NCBI GenBank assembly: GCA_937893835.1
Contig: CALCSS010000131.1
Span: 1 to 38,893 of the forward strand
DNA length: 38,893 nucleotides
Direction of reading: 5' to 3'
Source: an uncultured Fidelibacterota bacterium
GTDB taxonomy: Bacteria; Fidelibacterota; Marinisomatia; Marinisomatales; UBA1611
The position numbers were made by a program, and so were the translations under genes. The notes below the pieces were generated by a model. The model did no database searches. It had not been told where the DNA came from and saw nothing but the letters and a program-made list of their open reading frames with translations. Positions 2,285-26,224 of the stretch are shown here, piece by piece; within the stretch, counting starts at the first letter, position 1, and every line of letters begins with the position of its first letter.

Positions 2285-2404
2285 TTTAACCTCAGCATCT
2301 TCTTTGTCTGACAGAGATCTATCGCTATCAGGAATGAATTAACAATGAATGGTAGCAGTGTCTTTCTGCCGATCATTTTATCATCAACATTTTCTTTGTC
2401 TGAC
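2281..2404 (-). repeat. Direct repeat of sorting-tail coding sequence, 92 bp apart
   Basis: tcattttaacctcagcatcttctttgtctgac (2281-2312) vs tcattttatcatcaacattttctttgtctgac (2373-2404): 28/32 identical, encoding QTKKMLRLK* and QTKKMLMIK*. Confidence 0.85.
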
Positions 2405-4561: not shown

Positions 4562-7500
4562 TTATGATGATGTATCCCCTGAGACCACAAAGACATCACT
4601 TCCCAGATGCACCAGGGTCATGATCGCATATTGCCCCGCTGTCTTGCTACCATTACGGTTGTTCAAGGTCGTACTGGACGCACTCAGCGATATCTGTCCG
4701 CTTCCATTCTGAATGATCATGCAGTTGAATCCAGATGGTAGACTTGCTGGTACCGTGATTGTTATGGCGCTACTGCTTGAGCACACGATGATCGTACCAT
4801 TGTCTGCAGCGGCCAGGGTCTTTGTGGTTCCTGACTCCGACTGTAGGTCTGCTCCATAGCCCGTGATGGCATTATCATTGAAGTCTGCCTTTCCATCGAT
4901 CACGATCGTACCATCTGTTGCGTTTGTGATCGTTTCATCATTTGCCAGACTAATTCCAGCAGCATAGACAGTGGCACCCTTGTCCTGGGCCATATAGACC
5001 GCGGTCACGTCCGCATTGCCAAGAACTACCGAATTGTTCGCCTGCCCCGATGCTCCATAGCCGATCACGGTCTGATTGGTGCCGCTATTCTCGCTTGGGT
5101 CTGCAGCATTTCCTATTATCGTATTATTTGTACCGCTGGTAATTAAATCACCAGCATAATATCCAGCCGCTACATTCCCATCCCCAGTAGCATTATACAA
5201 AGAATTTCTACCCACTGCTGTGTTATTATTGCCAGTTGAGTTGTTAAACAAGCTGTTTACTCCCACAGCGGTATTATCATCTCCAGTAGTGTTAGTCTCT
5301 AAACTCCTAGCACCAACACTAGTGTTATAGCTCCCTCCTGTAGCAGTGCTCAACATACTTTGAAATCCCATGGCTGTATTAAATGTTGATGAAGTGTTTG
5401 CCTCTAAAGCCTTGTACCCTGTCGCCGTGTTATAACTTCCTGCGTTGTTTGTAGCAAGTGCATTATATCCAACAGCAACATTCTGTTGTCCAGTATTATT
5501 TGCAGTTAGTGCGTCATATCCAACAGCAACATTATTATCACCCGTTGTGATCGCATCCAGAGCAGTTGCGCCAACCGCCAGGTTGTAGTCTGCTTCGTCT
5601 GTTGTGGATGATGGATCTTGTCCAACATACATAGAATTGTCTTCAATAAGTGCGTCAGAGAGATCGGTTATTGCGGACACCCCAGATGCAGTAGCCCATG
5701 AAAGAGCTCCAGAGCCGTCGGTCTTCAAGATCTGATTCGCAGAACCATCAGCCGTAGGAAGAACCCAGACCTGATCAGCACTTAAGGTAGGCGCTTCAAA
5801 GCCTACATAATTACTGCCTTCATAGAAACGTAATTCATTATTGCTTCCACCTACACTAAGATCGCCGGCCGTAGTTAAAGCGCCGCCATCTGCAATCGCT
5901 AAAGCATCGTCTCCATCAGTGTATTCTATGAGAGGAGTCTGTATGGATGTAGATCCTTTAAATGTGGCACCGTAAGCTGTTGCACCAATATCCTGGGCCA
6001 TGTAGACTGCGGTCACGTCCGCGTTTCCCAGAGTAACGGAGTTATTTGCTTGTCCTGTTGCTCCATATCCCACCACAGTCTGGTTACTGGTACCAGTATC
6101 AGCGCTAGGATTCGCTCCAGATCCAATAATCACATTTTGATTGGCGCTTGTTGCACTTTTTGATGATTCGTAACCTAAGGAAACGTTATTTTGCCCAGAA
6201 TTAAGAAGGTAACTACTGGCGTGTCCAACTGCTGTATTGCTATTGGCCGTTGTATTTCTCTCTAATGCACTTGAACCCAAAGCCACATTTGTGATCCCAG
6301 ACGTGTTTGATTTTAAGGCATTCTTACCCACAGCTGTATTTCGATTTCCCCCTTCATTTACAGTCAGAGCATTATGTCCAATGGCCGTATTATTATCTCC
6401 AGTGGTCACAGCGCTTAGAGCAGTTGTTCCTAGCGCCACATTATAGTCAGCAGCATCCGTCGTTGAGGATGGATCATTACCGACATACATGGAACCCGTG
6501 TCCTCGACCAGTGCATCAGAGAGACCATTTATGCTCGTTGCGGAAGAGCCCCAGGACAATGTCCCACTTCCATTGGTCTTTAATACCTGATCCGAAGAAC
6601 CATCTGCAGTAGGGAGTGTCATGGACGTTGATCCAAAACCTAGTGCAGCGGCGTAGACCGTTGCACCCTTATCTTGGGACATGTATACCGCGGTCACGTC
6701 AGCATTTCCTAGTGTGACAGAATTATCTGCCTGACCTGATGCGCCGTAGCCAACGATTGTCTGATTGGTTCCTGCTTCGTCCGAAGCCGCGGTACTTGCA
6801 CCCAATAGGGTATTCTTGTTTCCTGTTGTTATATCATTTGTACCTGTGTTTCCTGCTTGATAACCTAGCGCACTATTATAACCATCTTGGTCTGCTGTCC
6901 TGTTGGCATCATGGAGGGATTCAAAACCCATTGCTGTATTATAATCTGAAGTTGTGTTCCCGTAAAGAGATCTATAGCCCATTGCAGTATTGTTATCCCC
7001 TTCGGTATTAACCACTAAACTCTGAAATCCCGAAGCAGTATTGTAAGTACCAGATGTATTAGCTCTTAAACTTCGCCATCCAAAAGCAGAGTTTCCGCTA
7101 TTTGTATTAATGTATAAAGCTTCAAAACCAACCGCAGTATTGTAAGATCCATTAGTGGTACTTTTTAAGGCCCTGAACCCCAAAGCAGAATTCTGTTCAC
7201 CAGTCGTGTTGTCAGATAAAACATCATATCCTACTGCAGTATTCTTATCTCCCGTTGTAATAGCATCTAAGGCAGTGACCCCTACAGCTAAATTGTAGTT
7301 TGCATCATCCGTTGTTGATGATGGATCATTACCGACATACATGGAACCCGTGTCCTCGACCAGTGCGTCAGAGAGCCCATTGATATTAGATGCTGCTGAG
7401 TTGGTTGCCCAATCCCCTACACCATCCCCGTCCGAGGTCCACACCTGGCCACTTGTTCCTGCCGAAGTGATGAAATATTCATTGTTCTCTACCTTGCTCG

Positions 7501-10324
7501 CTGACAATTCACCGTCTGCAAGGTCCGCAAGATCATCATCCGCGGCCTGTTTGGCATCCAACTGCGTCTGGACAGAGGAGGTCACGCCATCCATGTATCC
7601 CAATTCCGTGAGCGTCACTGTGGACGTATCCACCTTACCGCTGGCATTGGATATCAATGCGCGAGATGCGGTCAGATCCTCACTGTCGATCGTTGAACCC
7701 GCTCCGGTCAATCCCGCTGGGTCACCCCAGTCTCCTGCACCGTCCCCGTCTGAGGTCCACACCTGACCATTCGTTCCTTCTGTCGTGATGGCGTATTGTA
7801 CCTTGCTCGCTGACAATTCACCGTCTGCAAGGTCCGCAAGGTCAGCGTCATAGGCCTGCACGTCCACACCGATCTCAAGACCAAGGTTGATACGAGCGGT
7901 GGCAATATCTGATGCTCCCGTACCACCATCTGCGACCGCAATGTCTGTTATATCTGTCACCGAGCCACCCGTGATCGCGACATTGTCTGCTGCCTGAGTG
8001 GCGATGGATCCAAGACCCAGAGAGGTTCGTGCATCGGCACCACTCTCAACGGTCCAATCAGTGCCATCAGAGACAATGATGTTCCCATCTGCATGGGCAA
8101 GACCTGCGATATCAGCCAGGTCTGAAGACTTGGCCTGTTTGCTATCCAATTGTACCTGTAGGTTCGAGGTCACACCCTCGACGTAGCCCAATTCTGTCGT
8201 TGTCACCTCTGAGACGGCTATCTTACCTTCCGTGTTCGAGATGACCGCTCTAGAGGAAATGAGGTTCTCGGTATCGATCGTGGTGGCACCACCTGTGATA
8301 CCTGCCACATCGCCCCAGTCTCCGGCTCCGTCTCCGTCTGAGGTCCATACCTGTCCATTTGTACCATCGGTCGTGATGAAATATTCTGCATGCTGTACCT
8401 TGCTGGCCGAGAGTTTTCCATCTGCGAGATCTGCAAGATCAGCGTCATAGGCCTGCACGTCCACACCGATCTCAAGACCAAGATTGCTCCTGGCTGAGGC
8501 GACGTCTGAAGCGCCTGTACCACCATCTGCGATCGCAATGTCTGTTATGTCTGTCACCGAGCCACCCGTGATCGCGACATTGTCTGCCGCCTGAGTGGCG
8601 ATGGATCCTAGTCCCAGAGAGGTCCGTGCATCGGCACCGCTCTCAACGGTCCAACTGGTGCCATCAGAGACAATGATATTTCCATCTCCATGGGCCAGAC
8701 TGGACAAGGTCACTGCATTGGAGTCCATCTTCGCATCCAACTGGGCCTGTACATCTGATGCCACATTCTCCAGGTATTGGACCTTGCTTGCTGTTAATGT
8801 ACCATCAGATAGATCCGTGAGATCAGCGTCATAGCCCTGAATGTCCACACCGATCTCAAGACCAAGATTTTGTCGGGCCGTGGTGATGTCAGAGGCGCCG
8901 GTACCACCATCTGCGATGAGGATGTCGATCACGCCAGTGACCCTTCCACCAGATATGTCCACATTCTCCGATGACTGGGTCGCTATTGACCCAAGTCCCA
9001 GTGACTCTCTGGCATCAGACTCTCCCTCTATGGTCCAGCTCGTGCCGTCAGATACTATGAAATGATCATGGTTTTGCTCCAGGCCCGCCAAGGTGGTCAG
9101 ACTGGCACTGAGATCCTGCTTTGCGTCAAGCTGATCTTGGATGCTTGATGTGACGCCATCAACGTAGTTCAATTCTGTTGAATCTGCGGTGACCCCTAGA
9201 TCCTCAAGGCTGTTGACCGGTCCGGCACCAATGGCATCGATCTGCGCCTGTACGTCGGAGGTCACATTCTCAAGGTATTCTACCTTCTCTACTGACAAGG
9301 ACCCATCTGCCAGGTCAACGAGATCCGCATCATGGGCCTGTACATCCACACCGATCTCAAGGCCAAGGTTTGACCTTGCCGTGCTATTGTCAGACGCACC
9401 GGTCCCACCATCTGCGATGGCCAGGTCCGTTATGTCAGTTATGGATCCCCCCGTGATGGAGACATCATCATAGTTTTGCTCTGCCAGCGTTCCCAGACTG
9501 TCCTTGTTCACAAAGTTCGCCAGGGTGTCACTCGACACGTAGGACCCTAGAGTATCCAGGCCCGCATACTGGCTCAGATCGGGGAGATTGGTCAGGTCGT
9601 TGTAGTCACTGGTCAGTGCCACGGCGGCAAGGTCTGAGGTCAGAGTATAAGAGGAGAGACTGTCAGACATGACATAATGACCCAGACTATCAGACATGAC
9701 ATAATGACCCAGAGTATCAGACTCTAGGATATTGGAGAGATCTGGAACACCTTCCAGGTCATCATAGCTCCCAGTGAATGCCACTGAGTCCAAGCTACCG
9801 GTCTGAGGATAATTAGAGAGCGTGTCCCTTGTCGCATATACGGACAGGTCAGGCCGATCATCCAGGTCCATATAGTTACCTGCCTGTGAGTATTTTGCCG
9901 TATCGGAGACCACAGAATAGAAGACAGATGTCATCTCCTGCCTAGGAGACAGCGTCGTCTCATCTATCGTGATCTCTAGATATGAATTGGCAGGCACGCC
10001 GCCGATGGGATTGACAACACCAAGAGTGGCGCTGATCACACCATCAGAGATGCCTATGCCCTGGGTCTCCTCCCAGAACGCTGTTCCACCGCTCAATTCC
10101 TTGAACAGTCTGAATGTGACCTGGTATGTACCGTCACTGACAGCCCTGCCATTTGCCTTTGTCAAAAGGCCCTGATAGGACAAACGCCGAGGGACCGCAT
10201 CTAGCATGGAATTTGTTCTAATTCCAGCGTCTATGACACTGCCCAATGAAGGTTCAGATTGATTGTTCTTCTGCGCAAGGGACAATGACCCCAGCAAAAC
10301 AGAGATGAGTATTAACTTTCTCAT
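4562..10324 (-). CDS. Giant surface/fibre protein: 'SYQGxL' N-terminal domain, phage tail-fibre-like GTGAxxxxxARxNLGL repeats, YadA-head-like NTAVGxxAL repeats, fibre-like C-terminus
   Basis: ORF track gives 1922 aa starting at a TTG at 10330. The ATG at 10324 has AGGAG six nt upstream and gives MRKLILISVLLGSLSLAQ. Repeats include IADGGTGASDxxxARxNLGLEIGVDVQAYDADLxDLxDGxLSxSKVQ (x4) and NTAVGYxALxxNTTGxxN (many, in three blocks). Confidence 0.9.
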   Translation of the reverse strand: MRKLILISVLLGSLSLAQKNNQSEPSLGSVIDAGIRTNSMLDAVPRRLSYQGLLTKANGRAVSDGTYQVTFRLFKELSGGTAFWEETQGIGISDGVISATLGVVNPIGGVPANSYLEITIDETTLSPRQEMTSVFYSVVSDTAKYSQAGNYMDLDDRPDLSVYATRDTLSNYPQTGSLDSVAFTGSYDDLEGVPDLSNILESDTLGHYVMSDSLGHYVMSDSLSSYTLTSDLAAVALTSDYNDLTNLPDLSQYAGLDTLGSYVSSDTLANFVNKDSLGTLAEQNYDDVSITGGSITDITDLAIADGGTGASDNSTARSNLGLEIGVDVQAHDADLVDLADGSLSVEKVEYLENVTSDVQAQIDAIGAGPVNSLEDLGVTADSTELNYVDGVTSSIQDQLDAKQDLSASLTTLAGLEQNHDHFIVSDGTSWTIEGESDARESLGLGSIATQSSENVDISGGRVTGVIDILIADGGTGASDITTARQNLGLEIGVDIQGYDADLTDLSDGTLTASKVQYLENVASDVQAQLDAKMDSNAVTLSSLAHGDGNIIVSDGTSWTVESGADARTSLGLGSIATQAADNVAITGGSVTDITDIAIADGGTGASDVASARSNLGLEIGVDVQAYDADLADLADGKLSASKVQHAEYFITTDGTNGQVWTSDGDGAGDWGDVAGITGGATTIDTENLISSRAVISNTEGKIAVSEVTTTELGYVEGVTSNLQVQLDSKQAKSSDLADIAGLAHADGNIIVSDGTDWTVESGADARTSLGLGSIATQAADNVAITGGSVTDITDIAVADGGTGASDIATARINLGLEIGVDVQAYDADLADLADGELSASKVQYAITTEGTNGQVWTSDGDGAGDWGDPAGLTGAGSTIDSEDLTASRALISNASGKVDTSTVTLTELGYMDGVTSSVQTQLDAKQAADDDLADLADGELSASKVENNEYFITSAGTSGQVWTSDGDGVGDWATNSAASNINGLSDALVEDTGSMYVGNDPSSTTDDANYNLAVGVTALDAITTGDKNTAVGYDVLSDNTTGEQNSALGFRALKSTTNGSYNTAVGFEALYINTNSGNSAFGWRSLRANTSGTYNTASGFQSLVVNTEGDNNTAMGYRSLYGNTTSDYNTAMGFESLHDANRTADQDGYNSALGYQAGNTGTNDITTGNKNTLLGASTAASDEAGTNQTIVGYGASGQADNSVTLGNADVTAVYMSQDKGATVYAAALGFGSTSMTLPTADGSSDQVLKTNGSGTLSWGSSATSINGLSDALVEDTGSMYVGNDPSSTTDAADYNVALGTTALSAVTTGDNNTAIGHNALTVNEGGNRNTAVGKNALKSNTSGITNVALGSSALERNTTANSNTAVGHASSYLLNSGQNNVSLGYESSKSATSANQNVIIGSGANPSADTGTSNQTVVGYGATGQANNSVTLGNADVTAVYMAQDIGATAYGATFKGSTSIQTPLIEYTDGDDALAIADGGALTTAGDLSVGGSNNELRFYEGSNYVGFEAPTLSADQVWVLPTADGSANQILKTDGSGALSWATASGVSAITDLSDALIEDNSMYVGQDPSSTTDEADYNLAVGATALDAITTGDNNVAVGYDALTANNTGQQNVAVGYNALATNNAGSYNTATGYKALEANTSSTFNTAMGFQSMLSTATGGSYNTSVGARSLETNTTGDDNTAVGVNSLFNNSTGNNNTAVGRNSLYNATGDGNVAAGYYAGDLITSGTNNTIIGNAADPSENSGTNQTVIGYGASGQANNSVVLGNADVTAVYMAQDKGATVYAAGISLANDETITNATDGTIVIDGKADFNDNAITGYGADLQSESGTTKTLAAADNGTIIVCSSSSAITITVPASLPSGFNCMIIQNGSGQISLSASSTTLNNRNGSKTAGQYAIMTLVHLGSDVFVVSGDTSS
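9664..9717 (-). repeat. 27-bp tandem duplication (2 copies) encoding LGHYVMSDS LGHYVMSDS
   Basis: cagacatgacataatgacccagactat followed by cagacatgacataatgacccagagtat; in frame within the giant fibre-like protein. Confidence 0.9.
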
Positions 10325-10368
10325 GATCAACTCCTTTGGTGATCTAATAATATGAAAAAAACTTATGG

Positions 10369-12678
10369 TTAAAACGGGAAGTCAGGTGGAAGATCGATGG
10401 GCCCGCCATCGCTCAAGGCCGCGGAGATCCCCTGATTCAATAAAAGCAACAAGAGTCCAAGTAGCATGGGGTGGCTCTTTAGATACGCACCCATCCTACG
10501 ATTCCTATCAGATATCCTCTTGAATATAGACCTCTTCTCCTTCGGGATCAGACCCTCCAACGCAGACTCGACCGCGGTCTTGATGGGCTCCTCCAATCCG
10601 TAAATGCCTTCCTTTAGAATAATATAGTATGGGTAATGAACATAGTTGAACTGACTGCTGTTGGAGATGGTCCTATATTCTATACGCGTGAGTCTGTGGT
10701 CTAAGGTGTGGGTGGCATACAGCGTGGTCAGTCCATGGTTGTTCACCCTGAGCTGTTCCACGTCCATCACACGATTCTCATTATCGGTGATCGTATTGAT
10801 GATCCCATCGGTCGTCACGACCCGTATCGATCCAAAGGTATTGTCGGCGATATAAAGACGATTGAGATCGTCAAAGTCTATGCTCACAGGTGAGCCAAGA
10901 TATGACTCCAGTGCCATGACCCCATCCATCGCGGTAGCGAGGCTACTCTGAGTTCCCGCAACTGGGATCACTGATCCATCCATCGCAACCCTGAAGATCT
11001 GCCTCAAGGTCATGCTGCTCACGAATAATGAACCATCACTTGAGAGTGCAATGTCAGACGGATCCTCAATGGTGCCAGGGGCCAACATCACGGACCTATT
11101 TCCCTTGGGATCAAACTGATGAACAGAGCCATCACCCTCAAACAGAACGATGACATTCCCCTCAGGGTCTACCCTGATGCTCGTCGGTGCACTGGGCTCT
11201 TCATTCAAGAGCACACCGTGCTCATTCCGAGGTGTTGAATAGAGGGTGGTCGCCTTACCCTCGTATATTTTTTTGATCGAGTGATCGTCCTTGTCGGTCA
11301 CATACAGCTCCCCAAGGTAACCTGCGCAGACCCCAGACGGATAGGAGAGACCTTCCGGGCCCTGATCTTCTGAGATCGCGCTCTTCGGGTGCATCTCATG
11401 GCCCAGCCTGTTCACACTCTGTCTGTTGCCAGAGACGGCCACCATGGAGCCATCGGACTCAAATGCGATGGATGAAGGATAGCGCAGTGTGCTATCGGCA
11501 AAGGGGCTCAGTACGATCGTGTCTGCATCCCAAAAGCTCTCAGGCTCATTCTCATATATGTCACCCAATTTGAAATAGTGGAACTCGAGCTCAGAATAAT
11601 CATTTATGCCCCACGTCAAGATCTGGCCCGCGCGCTCTAGATAGGCATTCTCTGCCGCACAGTCATAGGATCGACAATTAAATTGGTAATACAAGGATGT
11701 GTCGATCACCTCGGTGTAGTAGAGGCTGTCAATGGAGGTGACCGTTTCATATCTCCTGTAGATGTAAGAGGTGTCTACGGTCTTTGTCGTATCATCCAAT
11801 TGACTCTCACTGAGGATCGTGTCGAGAGGTGCACTGGTAAAACTAGATCGATCCTCCCTTGAAGACAGTGTGTCATTGTAGACCAGAAGAACCGTATCTG
11901 GCTCGACCCTTATTCGTTCATATACCTTGTTTATCTCTATCTCAGAGGGGATCTTCCTACTGGGATCGAGGACATTCTCTGTGCCACGGGTTTTTAGAAA
12001 GTCATAGATGAAGGAATTGATTATGTCCACCTCCATCGGGTTGAGCCTGTGCTTGTTGAGGGCCTGAATGGTAAGATGACCAGCATTGATCACTGTCTCC
12101 GTCAGGGGCTGTCTATCTTCCACTACCTCTTCCAAGACCACAAAATTTGATTCATCATCTGAGAGTGGAATATCTGAGAATTCTTCGCTAGCGTCAGTAG
12201 AGATAGGGGCCTCTACCATGATGATCAGTGTGTCACTGTCACTGGATCCTGTATGATTCTGGACTCTTAGAATGACCCCGAATTGGGAACCACCCTCTGT
12301 ACTGGGAAGGTCCAGCTCAATATATTTGTTTCTGGTGATGATCTTCTTTATGCTTACGCGACCACTGGGGTCGAGTCCCTCTATCTCAGCCTCTGAATAG
12401 GGGATGATGTCGTCAAACTCTTCAAACCGATAATCATCCTGGAACAGGAGATTGGGCGCAAATGACCATTCATAGATCAGTGATCCATTGCTGGGTTGCG
12501 AACGCGACCCATCAAGGATGACCGTCGAAAGCGCTGGCCCTTTAATATCAGCACCTAGGTCACATACCACCTTACGCGATCGTAGGTTACTACCTGCCTC
12601 ATCATAGAGCAGTTCCTGCCCATTGATCATACTGGACAGAAAGAGCAATATAGAGATACTAGTGTATGTTCTTTTCAT
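10369..12678 (-). CDS. Secreted PKD-like + NHL/beta-propeller-repeat protein with C-terminal hydrophobic segment
   Basis: 769 aa; signal peptide MKRTYTSISILLFLSSMINGQ; PALSTVILDGSRSQPSNGSLIYEWSF (PKD-like); NHL-like repeats LSYPSGVCAGYLGELYVTDKDDHSIKKI, GSPVSIDFDDLNRLYIADNTFGSIRVV; C-terminal HPMLLGLLLLLLNQGISAALSDGGPIDLPPDFPF. Confidence 0.82.
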   Translation of the reverse strand: MKRTYTSISILLFLSSMINGQELLYDEAGSNLRSRKVVCDLGADIKGPALSTVILDGSRSQPSNGSLIYEWSFAPNLLFQDDYRFEEFDDIIPYSEAEIEGLDPSGRVSIKKIITRNKYIELDLPSTEGGSQFGVILRVQNHTGSSDSDTLIIMVEAPISTDASEEFSDIPLSDDESNFVVLEEVVEDRQPLTETVINAGHLTIQALNKHRLNPMEVDIINSFIYDFLKTRGTENVLDPSRKIPSEIEINKVYERIRVEPDTVLLVYNDTLSSREDRSSFTSAPLDTILSESQLDDTTKTVDTSYIYRRYETVTSIDSLYYTEVIDTSLYYQFNCRSYDCAAENAYLERAGQILTWGINDYSELEFHYFKLGDIYENEPESFWDADTIVLSPFADSTLRYPSSIAFESDGSMVAVSGNRQSVNRLGHEMHPKSAISEDQGPEGLSYPSGVCAGYLGELYVTDKDDHSIKKIYEGKATTLYSTPRNEHGVLLNEEPSAPTSIRVDPEGNVIVLFEGDGSVHQFDPKGNRSVMLAPGTIEDPSDIALSSDGSLFVSSMTLRQIFRVAMDGSVIPVAGTQSSLATAMDGVMALESYLGSPVSIDFDDLNRLYIADNTFGSIRVVTTDGIINTITDNENRVMDVEQLRVNNHGLTTLYATHTLDHRLTRIEYRTISNSSQFNYVHYPYYIILKEGIYGLEEPIKTAVESALEGLIPKEKRSIFKRISDRNRRMGAYLKSHPMLLGLLLLLLNQGISAALSDGGPIDLPPDFPF

Positions 12679-12710: not shown

Positions 12711-12740
12711 AAAAAAAAGATCCCAGAAAATCTGGGATCT
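12711..12740 (-). terminator. Rho-independent terminator of the minus-strand cadherin/barrel gene
   Basis: Plus strand aaaaaaaa gatcccaga aaa tctgggatct. On the minus strand this reads AGATCCCAGA-TTT-TCTGGGATCT-TTTTTTT, a perfect 10-bp stem followed by a T-run. Confidence 0.88.
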
Positions 12741-12841: not shown

Positions 12842-15187
12842 CTAGAAATTTGCCCTGTAATTAAGACCAAACCAGAATTTTGAGTCCGGCATCCAGTTCC
12901 CCTTGAGATCACTATTCTTTGATAGGTTTGATAGGGACAGACCAATGTCATCGGTGATATTCAGATTTAATTTGGTGATCATGTTGAGTCCAGAGATGAA
13001 TTGCAGTGAGAGCTCATAGAACGGCACCTTTGATACCTGAATAAAGTCCATGAACGATAGCCTCTCAATGAACTTTGGTTTTTCACCGATCTTGCCTGTC
13101 ACATCAAATCGGATATAGAAGGAACTCAGTCTCGTGAATGAGTCTCCCTCACCGTTCAGATCCTCTTGACTCCATGACACGGTATCACCAGGAGTAAGAA
13201 CCTGGTTGTAGAAAGTCCTTTCGTAGAGCTCTTGGTTATTGTCTATGGCCACTTGCCTGGTATCCTTCAAACGGTGTGCGATCTTTAGATAGTGAAACCC
13301 GGGAGCTGCTGTTATCCGACCAACAGATGGAAGTTTAACTGGCACCTCAACCGTCGTTGCGGCGAGGGCATAGCTATCCAATATATTGATGTTCTCTGTC
13401 TCATCCTTGACCGTGTTCCAATAGGCGGTGTCCGTTGTCGACACATTGGAGATATCAGAGGGTGAAAACAGTTTATCTCCAGAGCTTGGAGGATAAAAGG
13501 TAAATCCTATCAGTCCATGGAGACTGGTCCGTGTCCCAAAGAGATTGTCAATGTTGCCCCTGGCATACAGACCCAGGTAGTCGGAGCTTGCCACGTCAAC
13601 ACCATCATAGTTTCCGCTTCCTAAATCAAATGCAACTGGAAGACGCACTCCAAACTCTGATCGCTGAGTTGCAATACCCAATTCACTCGACCCGGCCAAT
13701 AGACCAGGCAGACCTATCAATGAATTTCCCACCCGCATGTTTGCCGCATACTGGATGAGATTGGAACGAATTGAAAAAGAGAAGAGGGACGACATCTTGA
13801 AATTGTTTGCGTGCCAGACGGAGAATATCGATCCGTATCCAGCCATAAGCCTCTCGCTCTCGCTCTTGTGAAATACGGTCTCAGACTCACTGGTGAGGTA
13901 CTCGTCCTTTGCGATCAATACCTTTTGAATGTCTTGGCTAAAGACCCAGTCAACTTTCTCACGATCAATGATGGAAAAATCCAATCCATTCCCATACCAT
14001 ATCTCATGTATCTCATCTGAGTTGCCCTTTTCCTGTACAATGATGATCTGATCGGTGGGGGACATCTCACGTATTGAGGTATCCTCACCATCCTCTATGG
14101 CATCACCATCGCCTGCGTTGATGTATTTCAGTGCCATATAGTTTTGTATGGCATCTTCCATGATTATGTGGTAGGGTTGATGGTCAACCGCCCACGCTAC
14201 GTACTTTCTCTTGTCCAGCGCAATGACCTCTGTCTCTTCAGCGTCCTTCACTTTTACATTGACGCTCCCGGAGACATGTAGCTTGTCATCCTTGCTGTCA
14301 ATGGCCTTGTAGGATATCTGGTAGACATTGTCCTTGTTCCTGTCCACGGGACCTTCGTAGTCGGGATCTCTCAAAAATGCAAGGTCTCCCGCACGTGTGA
14401 TCTTGAAATGTTCTTTGTCATCGCTCTTCGTTAGTTTGAATTTCACACTGGACTGGTTCTCATCGGGATCCTCAACCTTCAGCCTCCCTACGATCTTTCC
14501 AAGATTCTCAGAGTGACTGAAACTGGTCTCCTTTGCACTGACCAACACGGGAGCCTCATTCTGATCTTTGACCGTGACAGTGACATTTTCCACGATCTTC
14601 TCATCGCCAGAGTCCGAGACCTGCACAGCGATCGTGAAGGATCTCTCCTCCTCAAAGTCAAAGGGACGCTTGGTCAGCAGATTAGATCCATCAAGGCTGA
14701 AATCATCTCTATTGTCCTTTGCGAGACCAAACTTGAACTTGTCATCCGGGTCGGGATCTTCGACCTTCAATCTTCCTATCACTGTTCCCGCAGCGGCATT
14801 CTCCTTTACCTGGCTTTCACTCAGGGAGAGACCGGTGGGAGCGTCATTGACGGGGTTGATGTTTACCCGTACCTGAGCGGTTCCGGTCTCGAGGCCGTTG
14901 TCGACCTTATAGTCAAACTTATCAACACCAGAGACATCTGGCTCCGGTGTGTATAGGATCTTCTCACCTTGAACCTGGACCTTGCCCTTCTCTGGCTCAG
15001 TAACGATCTCTATGGCGACATTGCTCTTATCCTTGAGATCATCATTCTTAAGGACATTGATCTTGACAGACCCGTCCTCCTGAACCTGAGCATTGTCAGC
15101 CTTTATCTTGAGGCCTGCCTGTGAAAAGGCCACGCTCAAAATGATCATGGATGAAAAAAGAACTTTTAATTTGGTTAATATGTTCAT
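12842..15187 (-). CDS. Cadherin/Ig-like repeat protein with probable outer-membrane beta-barrel C-terminal region
   Basis: 781 aa; signal peptide; KINVLKNDDL...GVDKFDYKVDNG...VNINPVNDAP, two cadherin-like units (VKENAAAGTVIGRLKVEDPDPDDKF, SHSENLGKIVGRLKVEDPDENQSS); C-terminus MPDSKFWFGLNYRANF ends in Phe like a BAM signal. Confidence 0.8.
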   Translation of the reverse strand: MNILTKLKVLFSSMIILSVAFSQAGLKIKADNAQVQEDGSVKINVLKNDDLKDKSNVAIEIVTEPEKGKVQVQGEKILYTPEPDVSGVDKFDYKVDNGLETGTAQVRVNINPVNDAPTGLSLSESQVKENAAAGTVIGRLKVEDPDPDDKFKFGLAKDNRDDFSLDGSNLLTKRPFDFEEERSFTIAVQVSDSGDEKIVENVTVTVKDQNEAPVLVSAKETSFSHSENLGKIVGRLKVEDPDENQSSVKFKLTKSDDKEHFKITRAGDLAFLRDPDYEGPVDRNKDNVYQISYKAIDSKDDKLHVSGSVNVKVKDAEETEVIALDKRKYVAWAVDHQPYHIIMEDAIQNYMALKYINAGDGDAIEDGEDTSIREMSPTDQIIIVQEKGNSDEIHEIWYGNGLDFSIIDREKVDWVFSQDIQKVLIAKDEYLTSESETVFHKSESERLMAGYGSIFSVWHANNFKMSSLFSFSIRSNLIQYAANMRVGNSLIGLPGLLAGSSELGIATQRSEFGVRLPVAFDLGSGNYDGVDVASSDYLGLYARGNIDNLFGTRTSLHGLIGFTFYPPSSGDKLFSPSDISNVSTTDTAYWNTVKDETENINILDSYALAATTVEVPVKLPSVGRITAAPGFHYLKIAHRLKDTRQVAIDNNQELYERTFYNQVLTPGDTVSWSQEDLNGEGDSFTRLSSFYIRFDVTGKIGEKPKFIERLSFMDFIQVSKVPFYELSLQFISGLNMITKLNLNITDDIGLSLSNLSKNSDLKGNWMPDSKFWFGLNYRANF

Positions 15188-15199
15188 GATTGACCTGTT

Positions 15200-16939
15200 C
15201 TAAAAATTGACTGATATGTATGGTGAGATCAACAATGACCCACCTTTTTTATCGTTCTCATCGGGCCCCGTACCGGGATACCACTTCCAACTGCTTTTTG
15301 GATCATCTCTATCATCCTGGAACTCGATGAAAGAGTTATTGGGATAGAGCGTGCAGTCCATCCCGAGGTTGACCATCCTGTAGACATTATGCTCAAGCCC
15401 AAAGCTAAAGGCCTTGAATCCACTCGCTGATACATTGATCTGAAGATACCCCTTTGACCTCTTGTCATCTGTGACACCCTCTACCTTTGCATAGACCCCG
15501 ATCGCATCTGATCCTGTGACCCGATCGGTGACAGAGACCTGATCATCTAGATTCACATTGCCATGTAAGAACTGTGTAAAGGCCAGCCCCGCTTTCAGGC
15601 GCATGGAGCCATAAGGCTGCGAGACCCTTAGCTCTCTGCCTTTACCACTTCTTGCCCTCACAATACCCGTCGCAGCCCTGACCATCTGCTGGTCCTCAGG
15701 CGAGAGGGACTCAAGGGAGACCGCCATGGTCGTTTCACCGTCCCACTTCAATCTTGCGACGAATGCCCTGTCCTCCTCACTCAGATCCTTGATCTTGAGC
15801 ACCATGGTAAAATTATCCTTTTCACGATTGAGTGTGACCTTCTTCTTGTCACTCTTTTTTAAAGAGGCCTTGACCGTACTGCCCGAGGTGGTGGTCCACT
15901 CTCTTCCCTTCTCGGCCTGCTTGTGGGCCTTTTCATCTTTCTCGACCTGGATCGTTACAACATTACTCTCATCAAGGCCAAGAAAGAGACCATTATATTC
16001 GGCGTCATCCACAGCCCAGGTCCTACTTTTGGCGATCAACTTCTCTGCCTTGGCCTTCTGTTTCTTCTGATCCTTGATCTTTGTTCCGTAATTCGAATCA
16101 ACTTTTCTATTGATCTGAAATGTATTGCTCCAATATAATATGCCGCTGCTGGACGGAAGGACCAGATGCTTGCGGCTGAACATATCTGCCGCGGTATACT
16201 CTTGTCCATCCACATCCATATAATTGACCTGGCCGCCTAGCTTGTGAGTGTCAAACTTGAAACCAAATCCATAGTTTCCCTCCAGAGGATGACCAATTCC
16301 CTTTGAGACCGTCATTGTATTGCCTGGTACGATCAGATAGGAGCTGACTATGTCATTCGACAGCCCCAGCATCAGATTCTCTGAAAGTTGCCTGGAAAGA
16401 CCCAGGTCCGTGAATCCTTGCTCAAGCCTGAACGCCAGGCTCCCACTCTTTTGACGAATGAAGAATTTCATGGCCGTGCTCGCACTGACCTGTGAGTTTG
16501 ACCACCAAAAGGCATCTCTGGCATCCTTGAAGCTCCGCTCCTTGAACACATTGTCAACGGTACTGAATTGCTCAAGCTCTGATAGATCTCTCCGGCTCAC
16601 ATCCTTCCACTTGTACTCTCTGGACATGATGGTACTCAACTGAACTGGGTTCATCTTCTCGACCTCAGGCATGTCGAAGGAGATGTACTGACCCATTTGA
16701 TAGTCTTTTGCCTTTAGCTTCTTCAGTTCGATCTTCTCATCCTCAATGTCCATCTGGACAATGATGGAGAAAGAGGCCTGGATGCTATTCTCCTCGAATT
16801 TATCAACCTCGATCAACCTGTTTATGTAAGCCTCAATGAACTCACTATTTACGATGGGGTCTGCGACCTCCCAGAAAAGGGATTCTTGCCCATGGACCGA
16901 GACCATGAGCAGTGACCCGAGGATAACTTTTTTGATCAT
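15200..16939 (-). CDS. Probable outer-membrane/envelope protein with SHD1-like domain(s) and barrel-type C-terminus (GldM-downstream position)
   Basis: ORF track start at 16996 overlaps the upstream gene; the in-frame ATG at 16939 gives MIKKVILGSLLMVSVHGQ, a clean signal peptide just past the upstream stop. GREWTTTSGSTVKASLKKSDKKKVTLNREKDNFTMVLKIKDLSEEDRAFV matches the SHD1 pattern; C-terminus GGSLLISPYISVNF. Confidence 0.75.
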   Translation of the reverse strand: MIKKVILGSLLMVSVHGQESLFWEVADPIVNSEFIEAYINRLIEVDKFEENSIQASFSIIVQMDIEDEKIELKKLKAKDYQMGQYISFDMPEVEKMNPVQLSTIMSREYKWKDVSRRDLSELEQFSTVDNVFKERSFKDARDAFWWSNSQVSASTAMKFFIRQKSGSLAFRLEQGFTDLGLSRQLSENLMLGLSNDIVSSYLIVPGNTMTVSKGIGHPLEGNYGFGFKFDTHKLGGQVNYMDVDGQEYTAADMFSRKHLVLPSSSGILYWSNTFQINRKVDSNYGTKIKDQKKQKAKAEKLIAKSRTWAVDDAEYNGLFLGLDESNVVTIQVEKDEKAHKQAEKGREWTTTSGSTVKASLKKSDKKKVTLNREKDNFTMVLKIKDLSEEDRAFVARLKWDGETTMAVSLESLSPEDQQMVRAATGIVRARSGKGRELRVSQPYGSMRLKAGLAFTQFLHGNVNLDDQVSVTDRVTGSDAIGVYAKVEGVTDDKRSKGYLQINVSASGFKAFSFGLEHNVYRMVNLGMDCTLYPNNSFIEFQDDRDDPKSSWKWYPGTGPDENDKKGGSLLISPYISVNF

Positions 16940-16940
16940 T

Positions 16941-18380
16941 TTAATCATAATATTCGAACTCATTATCTGAAACGGTTTCTTTTTTGTATTTATCAACGAC
17001 CTTGATCCTTATCTCGGTCGTCTCACCAAACTGTGGCTCATCCATCTCAAAGCTATACTTGGCCACCCTCCGGTTCCCAATTCTCTTCTCTGGCTGTTCC
17101 TCATCAAGCTTACCGTATATGCCAGACAGAGGGACCACTGCCTTCTTGCCATTCTTATTACCATAGGTCGTCACGGTCAGCAGCATGTTGTTCGTCCCCT
17201 TGCCCATTCTCTTGAACTCCATCTTGGGTGGAGGGACCTTCCTCACCTTCACCTCATGGTTGAGACCCTTGACCGAGTTGCCATCCACAAAGGTCTCGAA
17301 CATCACCTTCCCTCTGCTCTTTGGTTTCAGCTTGGCCTGGTAGGAGTTGTAGGTCTTCGTATTCACCGCAGACCCAGATATCTTGACAGAGATCCTGTCC
17401 CTGTCCACATCCTTGACCCTGCTGTCAAACACGTAGTCCTCTCCTATGAAGATCTCCTTGTCCTCTGATGGTGAACTATACTGCGGATCGACAACGACGA
17501 TCTTGGCAGACGTGATGCTTGAACTTTTATCTCTTTTCCTTAGACCGACCACCTCGACCATCCCGCTGCTTGTGCCCTTACCGGTTATGAACGCACGGGG
17601 CAGACCTGAGACAAGATCCTTGACAAGATCCTTCCCGCTTGCTAGCTCCATGCTGAAATCAGCATCGGAGTTGACCCCACCTACACTGAAGGGGATCTCC
17701 CAGTCAAGTCCTCTGAGCACCGTGTATTTTTCCTTGTCGAACAAGACAAAGAACTCAGACTGTTGTCCGTCCATGTATATCAGGGTCACAGGGGTATCAA
17801 ACTGACGCTTGATGGAGAAACTACCCTCACGCGAGACCTCACTATCGATGATCTTCAATAACTTATCTGTGATCTTATAGTCCCCGAATGCGACGGACCA
17901 TTTGCCGTAGGTGACCGTATCAATGTCCGGGATGAACCTGATCCCCAGGTCGACGTTATAGGGTTGATTTAAATAATTCTCATCGACAGAGCTTAGATCA
18001 ACTCTCGCAACATAACGATTCTCGTCACCCTCATCCTCATAGGGCTCGACCACTACGGAGTCCAGCTCCCAATCATAATCATCATCGACACTTACCTCCT
18101 CGCCCTCGACCTCTATGATGGAGGTAGTGAAACTTGGTGTGAACTCGATCTTCCCTCTCTCATACTGGCCCTCTACATCAAAGAATAGCCTGTAATGATC
18201 TGGGTCCTCGTAATTTGATTCGACATTGTTGATCTCAACAAGGGTCTGGAGTTTATCCTGGGCAACATTCTTCAAGATATCATCCTGCCTGCGCATGTAG
18301 ACCGCCAACTCACCCTCAATGGCAAATAGACTCAGGATCGCTCCTAGATTTATCAAGAAGTAAACTTCTACTTTTTTCAT
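16941..18380 (-). CDS. GldM-like single-TM periplasmic Ig-domain protein (putative motor stator/shaft partner)
   Basis: 479 aa; one N-terminal TM (VEVYFLINLGAILSLFAI), then beta-rich periplasmic domains. YTVLRGLDWEIPFSVGGVNSDADFSMELASG and VKGLNHEVKVRKVPPPK resemble GldM D2-D4 motifs (VLYxGVDNPIxIxxPGV; FxVxxxPxP). Immediately downstream of a GldL-like gene. Confidence 0.62.
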   Translation of the reverse strand: MKKVEVYFLINLGAILSLFAIEGELAVYMRRQDDILKNVAQDKLQTLVEINNVESNYEDPDHYRLFFDVEGQYERGKIEFTPSFTTSIIEVEGEEVSVDDDYDWELDSVVVEPYEDEGDENRYVARVDLSSVDENYLNQPYNVDLGIRFIPDIDTVTYGKWSVAFGDYKITDKLLKIIDSEVSREGSFSIKRQFDTPVTLIYMDGQQSEFFVLFDKEKYTVLRGLDWEIPFSVGGVNSDADFSMELASGKDLVKDLVSGLPRAFITGKGTSSGMVEVVGLRKRDKSSSITSAKIVVVDPQYSSPSEDKEIFIGEDYVFDSRVKDVDRDRISVKISGSAVNTKTYNSYQAKLKPKSRGKVMFETFVDGNSVKGLNHEVKVRKVPPPKMEFKRMGKGTNNMLLTVTTYGNKNGKKAVVPLSGIYGKLDEEQPEKRIGNRRVAKYSFEMDEPQFGETTEIRIKVVDKYKKETVSDNEFEYYD

Positions 18381-18389
18381 GATCTGAAC

Positions 18390-18791
18390 CTATTTATTTA
18401 TGGCTTTTGAAAGGATCTCGTTCACTTCTTTTTTGATCTCTTCTCGCACTTTACCTTTTGCAAGATTAGATAATCCCTCACCCATTTGAGCCACCTTGAC
18501 CACTGCCTTTGTCAACTCTGAGAGTTCCTTGCCATTCATGTCAGCGACCCCACCTGAGGGAGCGCTATCTCCTCCACCACTATCAGGCCCAAGATTGTAG
18601 ATGCTTTGAGCGTACAGCAGCAAGAGACAGAATTCAAGTATGATGGCGCCAATGGACAAGTAGGTCATCACCCCAACATGATCAGGGTCCAGGGTCGCGA
18701 TTATGGATCTAAATCCAACTATCATGAGCAAGAAAGCAGCACCTCCATATACCATGGCCGTTCTTGCATTCATATCAGATCTGAGTTTCAT
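18390..18791 (-). CDS. GldL-like two-TM inner-membrane protein
   Basis: 133 aa: TM1 AMVYGGAAFLLMIVGFRSIIA and TM2 VMTYLSIGAIILEFCLLLLYAQSIY with Glu53 inside TM2, then a cytoplasmic-type helical tail. Compare GldL YGxGAxxVIxGALF / LTIGLxTEAFIF. Adjacent to the GldM-like gene. Confidence 0.62.
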   Translation of the reverse strand: MKLRSDMNARTAMVYGGAAFLLMIVGFRSIIATLDPDHVGVMTYLSIGAIILEFCLLLLYAQSIYNLGPDSGGGDSAPSGGVADMNGKELSELTKAVVKVAQMGEGLSNLAKGKVREEIKKEVNEILSKAINK

Positions 18792-18816
18792 TTTAATTTC
18801 CTTTATTTATTTATAA

Positions 18817-20172
18817 TTATTCTATTGTAAGCGTTCGTATTGCGGTGGAGGTGTAGCATCCATCACTAATATTGAACGGGATATCATAGCTACCGACATG
18901 ACTCGAGGTTGGTATTGCTGTGATGTTCCCAGAGTTGTCCCATGAGAACCAAGACCAATTCTCGGTCACGTTAAAGTTGATCACATCATTGTTGGGGTCT
19001 TGCCACTCCACGTCAAATTGAAGCGTGTCTCCTGGGGCCATGGTCTCAGGAAAGTTCCCAAGATTGTTGAACTCAGGAGCGTCGTTGGCCAAAAGCTCTA
19101 GGTCAAAGGAGTGCTCTGTTGTCAATGGCCTGCTGGGCCTGTCATCCTCCAGGGTCACGGAGATGGATGTCACTCCCGCATCTCCATTCTCAGGGGCCCT
19201 GACACAAAAGAGCTTACCATTGTCATCGTTGTCAAAGCTCAACCACTCGGCAGACTCTGTTCCCTCGTGCGTGAATGTGACAACCTCAGTACGATTGAAG
19301 TGAGGTTTAGAATTATTTGGGTCACTCCAATTGAGATCGATGATGTCGTCATTGTCATCGTAACAGCCGACCCTTATAGAGCTTGGTATCGAGTTCGTGT
19401 TCGAGAACACTGGGGCCAAATTTTCCCGGACCTCTATGTTGATCTCCTCCTGGACATCGATCTCATCATCGGTGATGGTCAATAAGAATTCATGATTTCC
19501 AACGTCATTGCTCTCTGGTGGGGCTGAAGAACCTATGTTCCCTTCAGAGTCAATGGAGAGCCATCCAGGTAAATTAGAGTCAGAGAGTGATGGATTATCG
19601 CCTTCATCCGTGTCAGTCCATTCTATCCTTGGACTATCATAGTCAACGTACTCGTCTGCATATCTTGGTATTTGATCGAGATTGGTGAAGTACGGGGTCT
19701 CATTCACATTGATCACCTTGATCTTAACGGTAAAGTCACCGTCAAGGTCTGCAGGGCTATCATCGCTCACAAGGATGACCACATCAACCTGCTTTGATCC
19801 GGTAAGTGCCTCAAAATTGATACTGCCATAGGATAGTTCAAGATTTGTGACCCCGGAATTGGAGTTGAGGACAAAATAATTTACTGCCGTACCGTCCATC
19901 TTCTGACTACTGATCGAGTAGGTAAACTCATCATCAGGATTAGGGTCTGTCGCATTCAGGGTGCCAATGGTCAGTCCCGGGGCCGAGTTCTCCTTTAACT
20001 GGCCTTCTTCTTCATCCCCTTCGGGTTTATGCTCGTCAGCCCATTCGATACCACCTCTGGGCGGTTGTGGGTCTAGGTCCTGGTTGTTTCCTGGGTATGT
20101 CAGATCAACCGTCTCACAGCCACTGGAAATCATTATCAGGGATATCAATGTTATTGATAGATGCTTCTTCAT
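18817..20172 (-). CDS. Lipoprotein with tandem cadherin/Ig-like (He_PIG-type) domains
   Basis: 451 aa; MKKHLSITLISLIMISSGC lipobox; EGQLKENSAPGLTIGTLNATDPNPDDEFTYSI cadherin-like; repeated YxxxxWxDxxxxxxPxxSxxxLPxWLSIDSEGNIxxxxP modules. Confidence 0.83.
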   Translation of the reverse strand: MKKHLSITLISLIMISSGCETVDLTYPGNNQDLDPQPPRGGIEWADEHKPEGDEEEGQLKENSAPGLTIGTLNATDPNPDDEFTYSISSQKMDGTAVNYFVLNSNSGVTNLELSYGSINFEALTGSKQVDVVILVSDDSPADLDGDFTVKIKVINVNETPYFTNLDQIPRYADEYVDYDSPRIEWTDTDEGDNPSLSDSNLPGWLSIDSEGNIGSSAPPESNDVGNHEFLLTITDDEIDVQEEINIEVRENLAPVFSNTNSIPSSIRVGCYDDNDDIIDLNWSDPNNSKPHFNRTEVVTFTHEGTESAEWLSFDNDDNGKLFCVRAPENGDAGVTSISVTLEDDRPSRPLTTEHSFDLELLANDAPEFNNLGNFPETMAPGDTLQFDVEWQDPNNDVINFNVTENWSWFSWDNSGNITAIPTSSHVGSYDIPFNISDGCYTSTAIRTLTIE

Positions 20173-20260: not shown

Positions 20261-22048
20261 TTACGGTACTTGTGCACCATTGTACGCAAGGATGAAACTA
20301 TCAAGGCTAACCTCTGTGTCCAAGTTTAATTTTTTTCTCAATCTATAGCGCTTATTTTCCACCGCTCGGACGGAGAGGCCCGTGACCCTCGCGATCTCCT
20401 TTGTGTTCATACTCATCTTCAAGTAGCAACACAGCTTGATGTCCGCGGTACGCAGGCCCGTGTAATGTACGCTCAAACTTTCAACAAATTCGGGATATGC
20501 CAATGAGAATTGCATTTGAAACTGGTCCCAGTCGGCCGAGTCGTCTATCTTGTTCTGTATCCTCTTTCTCAGAGGGTCCAACACCTTGCGATCTGCCTTG
20601 CTATCGATCAATGACATATGATATTCCAGATCCTTGTCTATGGAACTGAGGAGATCATTCTTTGAGACGATGTATGCCGACATCTTTACGAGCTCATCCT
20701 CCTTGCTTCTCAATTCATTTTCTGCTATCTGCCTCTCTTGCTTGTGGAGCAGTCTTTCTTGTGCCCTTGCTCTTTTTTTATTTCTATGGTTGATCACCGC
20801 CATGCCCAATAATACCATCGCAAACCCACCGAAAATGAAGAAGATCGATTCCCTTGACCTTGCCTCCTCCAATGCTCTTCGATTGACATCAAGTTGGAAC
20901 TTATAGTTGAGACTCTCCAATAGCATATCCATCCGATCGGAAGATAGGGATGCCTTTTTTTCAAGTAAGATATCGGCAGTCCCTAGAGCACTTCTATCCA
21001 ATTTATTTATTCTCAATATCTCTATCTTTTTCTCTAATAGGTCTATCTCTAGGACCGAGAGACCATTTAACTCACATATTTCCAGGGCCTTGTCTATCGA
21101 CCCAAGGGCACTGTAGAGGCTGTCCTGCTGTATTTGGATCTCGGACCTTCCAAGATAATGCTTCGCCAGTTGCAGTGGAAGTCTATGCAAGAGCCTCAAA
21201 GCAGATCTTGATTCAGAGTATGCACCATCAAAATTCTTTTGATCGGCATATACCCTCATCCTGAGTGAATGATCATACCCCAAATAACTATTTTTTTTAT
21301 TGACAATGGCCTGACTCACACCATCGCTTGTAGATGAGGGGACATGACTCAACAGAGAGTCCGAGGCCTGGAGTTGTTCCAATGACATTTCATCAAGGCC
21401 CCACTCTGCGTATAGCCCTGCCAGTCTCCCGTGCTGATAGACAACTGACAGTGCCGCACCAGGGAAGGTCGCGCTGGACCCTGTCAGAGACCGCTGAAAG
21501 ACCTTGTACCTAGCAGTACCTCGCCTAACATTCAATGCCTCCTTGTAGTAGACCAGAGCATTGTCATAGTCTTTTAGACCAAACTCCACACTACCAAGGC
21601 AGTTCAATGCGACTGCCTTTCCACTCACGTTATTCGATATTTTTTGGTCTCTCCTACTGAAGATATCCAAGGCGTGAAAATATTTTTCCTTGGCCTCCAA
21701 CCACTTTTTTTGGTGTCTGTAGACATTACCAATAGAGATATCATTCCAAGGATTGATATTTGCGTGGCTTTTTTGCTTTGCATCTAATAGACTCGTCAGG
21801 GAAAGAGAAGGCAGGCCAAGTTCGAGATATATCTCACCTAGAATATGCAGTACCCTTGATTCCAGGTCTCTATCTTCTAGGTCAAGTCCCTCCAATATCT
21901 CACGGGCGTACCTGATCGCCCTATCAGGTGCCTTGGGCCTCAAGGACCTCAAGGAATCCAGCTCGGGATATTTAATAGGACCGTCCTGTGCGACCAGCAT
22001 ATTACCTACCAGTGACAGGCAGAATAATGCTAAGGCTAATTTTTTCAA
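20261..22048 (-). CDS. TPR - transmembrane - coiled coil - LuxR-type HTH regulator
   Basis: 595 aa starting at TTG (MKKLALALFCLSLVGNMLVAQ, AAGG 8 nt upstream). TPR-like repeats, one TM (IFFIFGGFAMVLLGMAVI), C-terminal GLRTADIKLCCYLKMSMNTKEIARVTGLSVRAVENKRYRLRKKLNL. Confidence 0.85.
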   Translation of the reverse strand: MKKLALALFCLSLVGNMLVAQDGPIKYPELDSLRSLRPKAPDRAIRYAREILEGLDLEDRDLESRVLHILGEIYLELGLPSLSLTSLLDAKQKSHANINPWNDISIGNVYRHQKKWLEAKEKYFHALDIFSRRDQKISNNVSGKAVALNCLGSVEFGLKDYDNALVYYKEALNVRRGTARYKVFQRSLTGSSATFPGAALSVVYQHGRLAGLYAEWGLDEMSLEQLQASDSLLSHVPSSTSDGVSQAIVNKKNSYLGYDHSLRMRVYADQKNFDGAYSESRSALRLLHRLPLQLAKHYLGRSEIQIQQDSLYSALGSIDKALEICELNGLSVLEIDLLEKKIEILRINKLDRSALGTADILLEKKASLSSDRMDMLLESLNYKFQLDVNRRALEEARSRESIFFIFGGFAMVLLGMAVINHRNKKRARAQERLLHKQERQIAENELRSKEDELVKMSAYIVSKNDLLSSIDKDLEYHMSLIDSKADRKVLDPLRKRIQNKIDDSADWDQFQMQFSLAYPEFVESLSVHYTGLRTADIKLCCYLKMSMNTKEIARVTGLSVRAVENKRYRLRKKLNLDTEVSLDSFILAYNGAQVP

Positions 22049-25800: not shown

Positions 25801-26224
25801 CATCGCCATCGCTTACTGAAAGGTCGAACACCTCTAATTCTACCACTGCAGACAATATGTCAGACCCGTCATAATGCAAGTTCAAAACAACTTCATCTCC
25901 GCCAGCGGCGATCTCACCTCCCAAACCATTATAAAAGACCACTCTCCCCGAGCCATCATCAAAGACAGTGTAATCTGCACTAAAATTATCCTGATCCACA
26001 GGAACTGCACCTGATAGAGTAATGATCGTAGGTAGAGCAATAAGATCAAATTGAAGACCCCCAACTGCATTGTCTGGATTTGTCAACGTTACTGGTACCA
26101 CAATATCCTCAGTATATCCACTTACCTGGACCTCTCCTATGGAAACGGTCACATTAGAGAATGCTGCACTACTGGCAGTTAAGATCATGATCAAAAGAGA
26201 AAGATTTCTTCTCATAAATGTCAT
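22883..26224 (-). CDS. Secreted cohesin-like / FnIII / choice-of-anchor-J-like protein with T9SS type-A-like sorting tail
   Basis: 1113 aa; repeated cohesin-like units (VVPVTLTNPDNAVGGLQFDL; VYLDIDLQNSGEVGGLQFDI; QTTGSVFLENTQPVYAMQFDI); EDFEEGTVPDDW...GWAVDDVFI jelly roll; tail NYPNPFNPSTIISYDL...GVYIYKLSAGSRIFSQKMILMK. Start has GGAGG six nt upstream. Confidence 0.9.
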   Translation of the reverse strand: MTFMRRNLSLLIMILTASSAAFSNVTVSIGEVQVSGYTEDIVVPVTLTNPDNAVGGLQFDLIALPTIITLSGAVPVDQDNFSADYTVFDDGSGRVVFYNGLGGEIAAGGDEVVLNLHYDGSDILSAVVELEVFDLSVSDGDGNLVDGDVVNGSITIGDVIILSASTDTGDVSEQVYLDIDLQNSGEVGGLQFDIYDTPNYLDVTGFTTTDRSTGFTIDFNELDNGDTRVIMYSGDNQNIETGSGSIATMEMMIHENAYNSNVGVNFSNVTVTDGIGGTYWVESADSGTVTVSPGYIEEPHNLQVQDGMDAQVLLSWDPPFGPIPEDFSEDFEEGTVPDDWDLTTNSAQGWFITQDGSSGFWAIPSHTWYMCSNDDMANDDGSMDYMVTPPLNVSGAENITLNFASYFDGAYSQTAHIAVSTDGTNFTEVYALDPVSEWVTETVDLSEHAGVSNLYIAFHSNDNGFWGSGWAVDDVFITFAAREVGRNVHYELTELGEWALSAPKEEVIEQFPGGIPHELKVDLDNPINNEIRPVELDAFKVYRSLSGTSDFEEIAEVGSDVTTYLDEDVVNSTTYYYYVTAIYPDGTESGPTETISATPVEWVELWFDDGASLSGQMDTLDFYINNESDLGLFYFEIMDYPDIINSLNIITTERTSDWALEIADQGDGTIAITGISVGTVLGAGDGPVCRAVLYPTAEQEVTVNLSYTSGTSIQDVGYVDLNWTAESGTYDVGIETQYLSLYGGYGNSDSQTTGSVFLENTQPVYAMQFDILADPPFINGVDLSFNPLLDLENWSVSGADLGIGYRVTAYDNSQSNPIEPGVGHLVDIEYDVLTGIPDGTIIDITISEAVLADVNNLPMVTVGNPHSFYIGQPPVGCTIENVSGQMTPGGSGTFEIHIDNIETLNILEFEITDMPDLMTVTNITPLGRFEDGTIDGISGETESGSFYFLGYDFVTAIEPDTGPILEVEVEFSNTLTNPSVVFMITSISAGDVNANPLTIVADNFGQFSGEMVGVDLGDGLPVSFALHPNYPNPFNPSTIISYDLAFQSDVSLNIYDMRGRMIRNLVGQTQEAGHYLIEWHGNDNSGNNVGAGVYIYKLSAGSRIFSQKMILMK

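What the first reader, a model, noticed from the sequence alone, without database searches (positions are those of the whole stretch)
12842..20172. gldKLMN-like operon order with non-canonical outer partners (candidate new motor-powered envelope system)
Seen: same-strand order lipoprotein (451 aa, cadherin/Ig-like) - L-like - M-like - exported protein ending ...LLISPYISVNF - cadherin-repeat protein ending ...WFGLNYRANF, closed by a strong terminator at 12711-12740. The geometry matches lipoprotein(K)-L-M-N, but by eye the lipoprotein lacks a GldK-type FGE/sulfatase domain and the gene after M does not look like GldN. Inference: a GldLM motor coupled to a different periplasmic/outer-membrane ring or barrel, used for a surface machine other than canonical T9SS, or a lineage-specific T9SS branch.
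Basis: partly seen in the sequence, partly recalled or inferred. Interest (0 to 1): 0.9.

Follow-up and report, generated by a model that had tools for sequence, protein, structure and literature searches.

The report
GldLM-like motor cassette with paired barrels
A conserved block of four unnamed genes in some marine Fidelibacterota (Marinimicrobia/SAR406) looks like an inner-membrane motor pair coupled to two outer-membrane barrel proteins: built like the Bacteroidota gliding/secretion motor, but not detectably related to it in sequence.

Summary
The five ORFs and the terminator exist as described. The conserved unit is four genes, L-M-N-E. Wherever a contig spans it, the order is intact, across six families of one phylum and in one candidate-division KSB1 contig, with M down to about 25% identity. 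The 451-aa lipoprotein is a lineage-specific add-on. L, M, N and E match no Pfam, NCBIfam or PDB family. L has two TM helices with an invariant glutamate in TM2. M has one N-terminal TM helix and a modelled string of Ig-like periplasmic domains. N models as a periplasmic domain plus outer-membrane barrel, and E is its tandem paralogue. This matches GldLM in layout only: profile-profile tests found no homology. SprA is in 234/246 genomes of the phylum and PorV-like proteins in 120/120 sampled, but canonical GldL/M/N are essentially absent. The cassette is in only 40/246, so it is not the phylum's general T9SS motor. Best reading: an uncharacterised, probably ion-driven, inner-membrane motor linked directly to a pair of outer-membrane barrels, with lineage-specific accessories. 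Motor activity and output are inferred, not shown.

The parts
18817..20172 (-). K: lipoprotein with Ig/cadherin-like repeats; lineage-specific accessory, not core
   Evidence: ORF and lipobox; He_PIG/cadherin; homologues only in the f1/f15 loci
18390..18791 (-). L: two-TM inner-membrane protein, invariant Glu53 in TM2, cytoplasmic coiled-coil-like tail; candidate motor ring subunit
   Evidence: no profile hit
16941..18380 (-). M: one N-terminal TM helix plus a string of about four periplasmic beta/Ig-like domains; candidate shaft
   Evidence: no profile hit
15200..16996 (-). N: exported protein, N-terminal alpha/beta periplasmic domain plus outer-membrane barrel ending in Phe; in this lineage an insert of about 150 aa with weak SHD1 resemblance (annotated TTG start; an ATG near 16963 is likelier)
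12842..15187 (-). E: homologue of N (barrel plus N-terminal domain) with a lineage-specific N-terminal extension of cadherin/Big_9 repeats
12718..12740 (-). Intrinsic terminator closing the cassette
20261..22048 (-). TPR protein with LuxR/sigma-r4-type HTH at its C-terminus; likely linked regulator in f1 lineages
10369..12678 (-). NHL beta-propeller protein, downstream of the cassette in 7 f1 loci; association uncertain
4562..10330 (-). 1922-aa exported repetitive fibre-like protein (NTAVGY.AL repeats), downstream in 5 f1 loci; possible surface fibre, association uncertain

Best explanation
L-M-N-E is an uncharacterised four-gene trans-envelope module. Proposed working: several L subunits (two TM helices, a protonatable Glu in TM2, cytoplasmic tail) form a ring around the single TM helices of an M dimer; ion flow past Glu53 drives movement of M; M's string of Ig-like domains crosses the periplasm and pushes on the N-terminal periplasmic domains of two related outer-membrane barrels, N and E, which pass the motion to the surface or gate what passes through them. 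Lineages attach different accessories: a cadherin-repeat lipoprotein here, a ParA-containing block in family f12, a TonB_C protein in f30. Shown: conserved four-gene order, L-M co-occurrence, TM topology by hydropathy, invariant TM2 Glu, modelled Ig-string for M, modelled barrel for N, and N-E homology. Inferred: ion-driven motion, stoichiometry, M-N/E contact, and the output (most plausibly movement or display of a surface protein).
For: Intact L-M-N-E order wherever the contig spans it, with M down to about 25% identity, and in KSB1. L and M occur in the same 40 of 246 genomes; the one extra L hit is spurious. L: two TM helices in 38/40, basic N-terminus, acidic periplasmic loop; invariant G17 A18 A19 G26 E53 F54 Y60 A61 in TM1/TM2. 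This is the layout of GldL, whose TM2 Glu49 is essential (PMC8986121). M: one TM in 40/41, helix 2-45 continuous with the TM and then a string of beta domains, pLDDT 82, best PDB matches multi-Ig chains. N: N-terminal domain plus barrel, the listed PDB matches almost all outer-membrane barrels, last residue F in 34/38. E homologous to N over 373 columns, hhalign 94%, E 2e-7, BLASTP to 8e-9.
Against: No sequence homology to GldL or GldM: L versus GldL matched only the coiled coil, the TM hairpins scored no better than shuffled columns (73/200), and M versus GldM gave 1.4% probability, though the GldL/GldM reference sets were small. M's first periplasmic domain is mainly beta, with one helical hairpin, unlike GldM's helical D1. 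No GldM among the 50 listed fold matches. M's TM has no conserved acidic residue mid-membrane. Two-TM proteins with a buried Glu need not be motors. No experimental data exist.
Confidence: 0.47

Rival explanations
1. A passive trans-envelope tether: L anchors M in the inner membrane and M bridges to the N/E barrels for envelope spacing or positioning, with no ion-driven motion.
For: Multi-Ig M and cadherin-rich K and E look structural. No homology to any motor protein was found.
Against: Strict conservation of a buried Glu and of polar or small TM residues in L is not needed for an anchor. A two-TM partner plus a single-TM shaft is the layout of known motors.
Confidence: 0.22
2. A dedicated TonB/ExbBD-like energised transport system: L-M energises the two barrels for import or export of a substrate.
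For: In f30 a TonB_C-domain protein lies immediately upstream of L in 12 loci. N models as a barrel.
Against: The TonB_C gene is absent from the other lineages. M lacks an ExbD domain. N and E are not TonB-dependent receptors by any profile.
Confidence: 0.15
3. [quoted passage not shown]
For: SprA, PorV-like proteins and T9SS tail domains are widespread while canonical GldL/M/N are essentially absent. Layout resembles gldLM followed by outer partners. One locus has a PorE-like OmpA protein downstream.
Against: Only 40/246 genomes carry the cassette against 234/246 with SprA, with a sharp boundary and no weak intermediates. Not seen adjacent to sprA in the loci read.
Confidence: 0.13

Closest known systems
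GldL/PorL and GldM/PorM (T9SS/gliding motor of Bacteroidota)
   Same: Adjacent genes; two-TM protein with an essential or invariant TM2 Glu and cytoplasmic tail; single-TM partner with about four periplasmic domains
   Different: No profile or profile-profile match; D1 of M is mainly beta; no gldK/gldN beside it; no sprA linkage seen; patchy distribution
GldK/GldN and SprF/PorG
   Same: Outer-envelope partners of a motor
   Different: N/E are a tandem paralogous barrel pair with their own periplasmic domain; no FGE domain; no conserved cysteines, so the GldK-SprF/PorG disulfide coupling (PMC12635249) cannot apply to N or E
Other 5:2 motors (MotAB, ExbBD, TolQR, AglRQS, ZorAB)
   Same: Inner-membrane pair with a TM acidic residue is the proposed principle (PMC9389320)
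   Different: No family match; L has two TM helices; M's TM lacks the mid-membrane Asp of MotB/ExbD-type subunits

Membership tests
GldL/PorL | Match to curated model TIGR03513 or Pfam | tested here: not met
GldL/PorL | Two TM helices, both termini cytoplasmic | tested here: met
   hydropathy (38/40 with two TM helices) and charge distribution
GldL/PorL | Strictly conserved Glu in TM2 | tested here: met
   E53 invariant; compare GldL E49 (PMC8986121)
GldL/PorL | Detectable homology in profile-profile comparison | tested here: not met
   10% probability, coiled coil only; TM hairpin no better than shuffles
GldM/PorM | Match to TIGR03517 or GldM Pfam domains | tested here: not met
GldM/PorM | One N-terminal TM and an elongated multi-domain periplasmic part | tested here: met
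GldM/PorM | Helical first periplasmic domain | tested here: not met
   M residues 47-185 are mainly beta, with one helical hairpin (155-185)
GldM/PorM | Profile-profile homology | tested here: not met
   1.4% probability, though collinear with the D3-D4 region; GldM set only 5 sequences
GldK | FGE/sulfatase-modifying domain in the lipoprotein | tested here: not met
   K has only Ig/cadherin repeats
GldN | Match to TIGR03523 | tested here: not met
5:2 ion-driven motors | Pentamer-dimer stoichiometry and ion-driven rotation | not testable with these tools
   needs cryo-EM and functional assays
T9SS (as its motor) | Co-distribution with SprA | tested here: not met
   234/246 SprA versus 40/246 cassette

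The most novel reading that the evidence does not exclude
A separate class of ion-driven trans-envelope motor, unrelated in sequence to GldLM or MotAB/ExbBD, that drives a pair of outer-membrane barrels directly without a GldKN ring, and powers surface fibre movement, gliding or secretion in Fidelibacterota and KSB1.
Probability: 0.3. Interest if true: 0.87.

Novelty: new variant of a known kind. Interest (0 to 1): 0.64.

Why it matters
Few ion-driven motors that act across the cell envelope are known. A module with the GldLM layout but unrelated sequence and a simpler outer part (two sister barrels instead of the GldKN ring or track) would show how such machines vary or arise independently. 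It also exposes a testable gap: a whole phylum keeps SprA and PorV-like proteins while lacking the canonical GldKLMN energy module.

Tried and rejected
GldM_1st hits in the own genome were below cut-off; the better one lies in threonyl-tRNA synthetase. Viral-contig scans for GldM and M found nothing. The cassette as universal T9SS motor was rejected on distribution. Search for L-like hairpins without M found none. GldK model hits in 84/120 genomes are taken as generic FGE-family matches: none over cut-off, and the model also rings in controls. Weak GldL hits in about 20 genomes cover mainly the coiled-coil part. A KSB1-phylum search could not be centred. GldLM homology by hhalign tried and not supported. 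Papers searched: no report of this cassette found in the held library.

Full report
What is there. The five minus-strand ORFs lie as described: K 18817-20172, L 18390-18791, M 16941-18380, N 15200-16996, E 12842-15187. They are tightly packed and closed by a terminator hairpin at 12718-12740. The window belongs to a roughly 2-Mb, 71%-complete genome whose nearest named relatives are Candidatus Neomarinimicrobiota/Marinimicrobia, now Fidelibacterota.

Conservation. A search with M as single protein and as profile gave the same 40 of 246 genomes, with no weak intermediates. They fall in six families: f1 17, f12 7, f15 1, f24 1, f28 1, f30 13. Reading the surroundings showed L-M-N-E in this order and strand wherever the contig was long enough, even where M is only 25-30% identical. 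A scan of 85,462 species genomes found 39 loci, nearly all Fidelibacterota and one candidate division KSB1 contig (L110), which also carries L (9520-9984), M, N and E in order. A profile of the L hairpin alone hits the same genomes (one extra weak hit is spurious), so L and M travel together.

What varies. The lipoprotein K occurs only in f1/f15-type loci. In f12-type loci five other genes precede L: a possible zinc-ribbon protein, a 240-aa protein, a ParA/MinD-type ATPase, a 476-aa and a 326-aa protein. In f30, a TonB_C-domain protein with a possible lipobox precedes L. In G130 a PorE-like OmpA/PD40/M23 protein follows E. In K-bearing loci, and in G138, which has the f12-type block upstream instead, N has an insert of about 150 aa and E has an N-terminal cadherin extension; other lineages have the short core forms. 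M types do not strictly follow families: G130 and G138 (f1) carry divergent or f12-like versions, so transfer or contamination is possible.

What the proteins are. None of L, M, N and E reaches a cut-off in Pfam or NCBIfam apart from E's cadherin/Ig repeats, and none has a credible PDB relative; NCBIfam was run on the window proteins and on all M members. L: two TM helices, basic N-terminus, acidic loop, invariant Glu53 in TM2. M: one TM helix inside a long helix 2-45, then a string of beta domains; model pLDDT 82, pTM 0.45, best fold matches multi-Ig chains. N (modelled on an f12 member without the insert): a domain at about 35-121, then a barrel; pLDDT 74; the listed PDB matches are almost all outer-membrane barrels, with low TM-scores, so the fold class is supported but not a specific relative. 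N and E are homologous over 373 columns and by BLASTP. E was not modelled; its barrel is inferred from homology with N.

Is it GldLM? By layout yes, by descent not shown. GldL's TM2 Glu49 is essential in Flavobacterium (PMC8986121), and L has an invariant Glu in TM2. But profile comparison gave no support, and the TM hairpins matched no better than shuffled columns. The GldL and GldM reference sets were small (6 and 5 sequences, part of them taken from PDB alignments printed), so a deeper test could still find kinship.

Link to T9SS. SprA occurs in 234/246 genomes of the phylum including this one, PorV-like proteins in 120/120 sampled though below the PorV cut-off, and T9SS tail domains lie in this window. 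Canonical GldM occurs in 2/246, GldN in 1 and GldL in 1 above cut-off; these sit on contigs in G166 and G103 that carry Bacteroidota-like gldKLMN genes and may be contamination or transfer. The cassette, in 16% of genomes, cannot be the general replacement motor.

Mechanism. The most likely working is that L and M form an ion-driven inner-membrane motor whose M shaft acts on the periplasmic domains of the N/E barrel pair. The structural anatomy is shown or modelled; energy coupling, stoichiometry, contacts and output are inference. The long repetitive fibre-like protein at 4562-10330, downstream in five f1 loci, is a possible client, but the link rests on neighbourhood alone.

Noticed in passing
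phylum-wide; own genome G000:C82 (L117): SprA in 234/246 Fidelibacterota genomes but canonical GldL/M/N essentially absent: a T9SS translocon without the known energy module.
   Followed up: partly
L115 (G166:C9), L120 (G103:C43), L053 (G164:C9): Bacteroidota-like gldKLMN, gldK-L-M and a full-length SprA in three genomes; likely contamination or transfer.
   Followed up: partly
window 4562-10330: 1922-aa exported protein of NTAVGY.AL-type repeats, fibre-like, no family assigned except a sub-threshold DUF7460.
   Followed up: partly
window 22883-26224 and 2373-4202: Proteins with T9SS type A sorting domains flank the region.
   Followed up: partly
window 15200-16996, residues about 310-455: N insert resembling two SHD1-like modules, below Pfam cut-off; by strand counting probably in an extracellular loop.
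   Followed up: partly
L043:2203-6579 and other f12 loci: Conserved five-gene block with a ParA/MinD-type ATPase upstream of L, the other four genes without any family over cut-off.
   Followed up: partly
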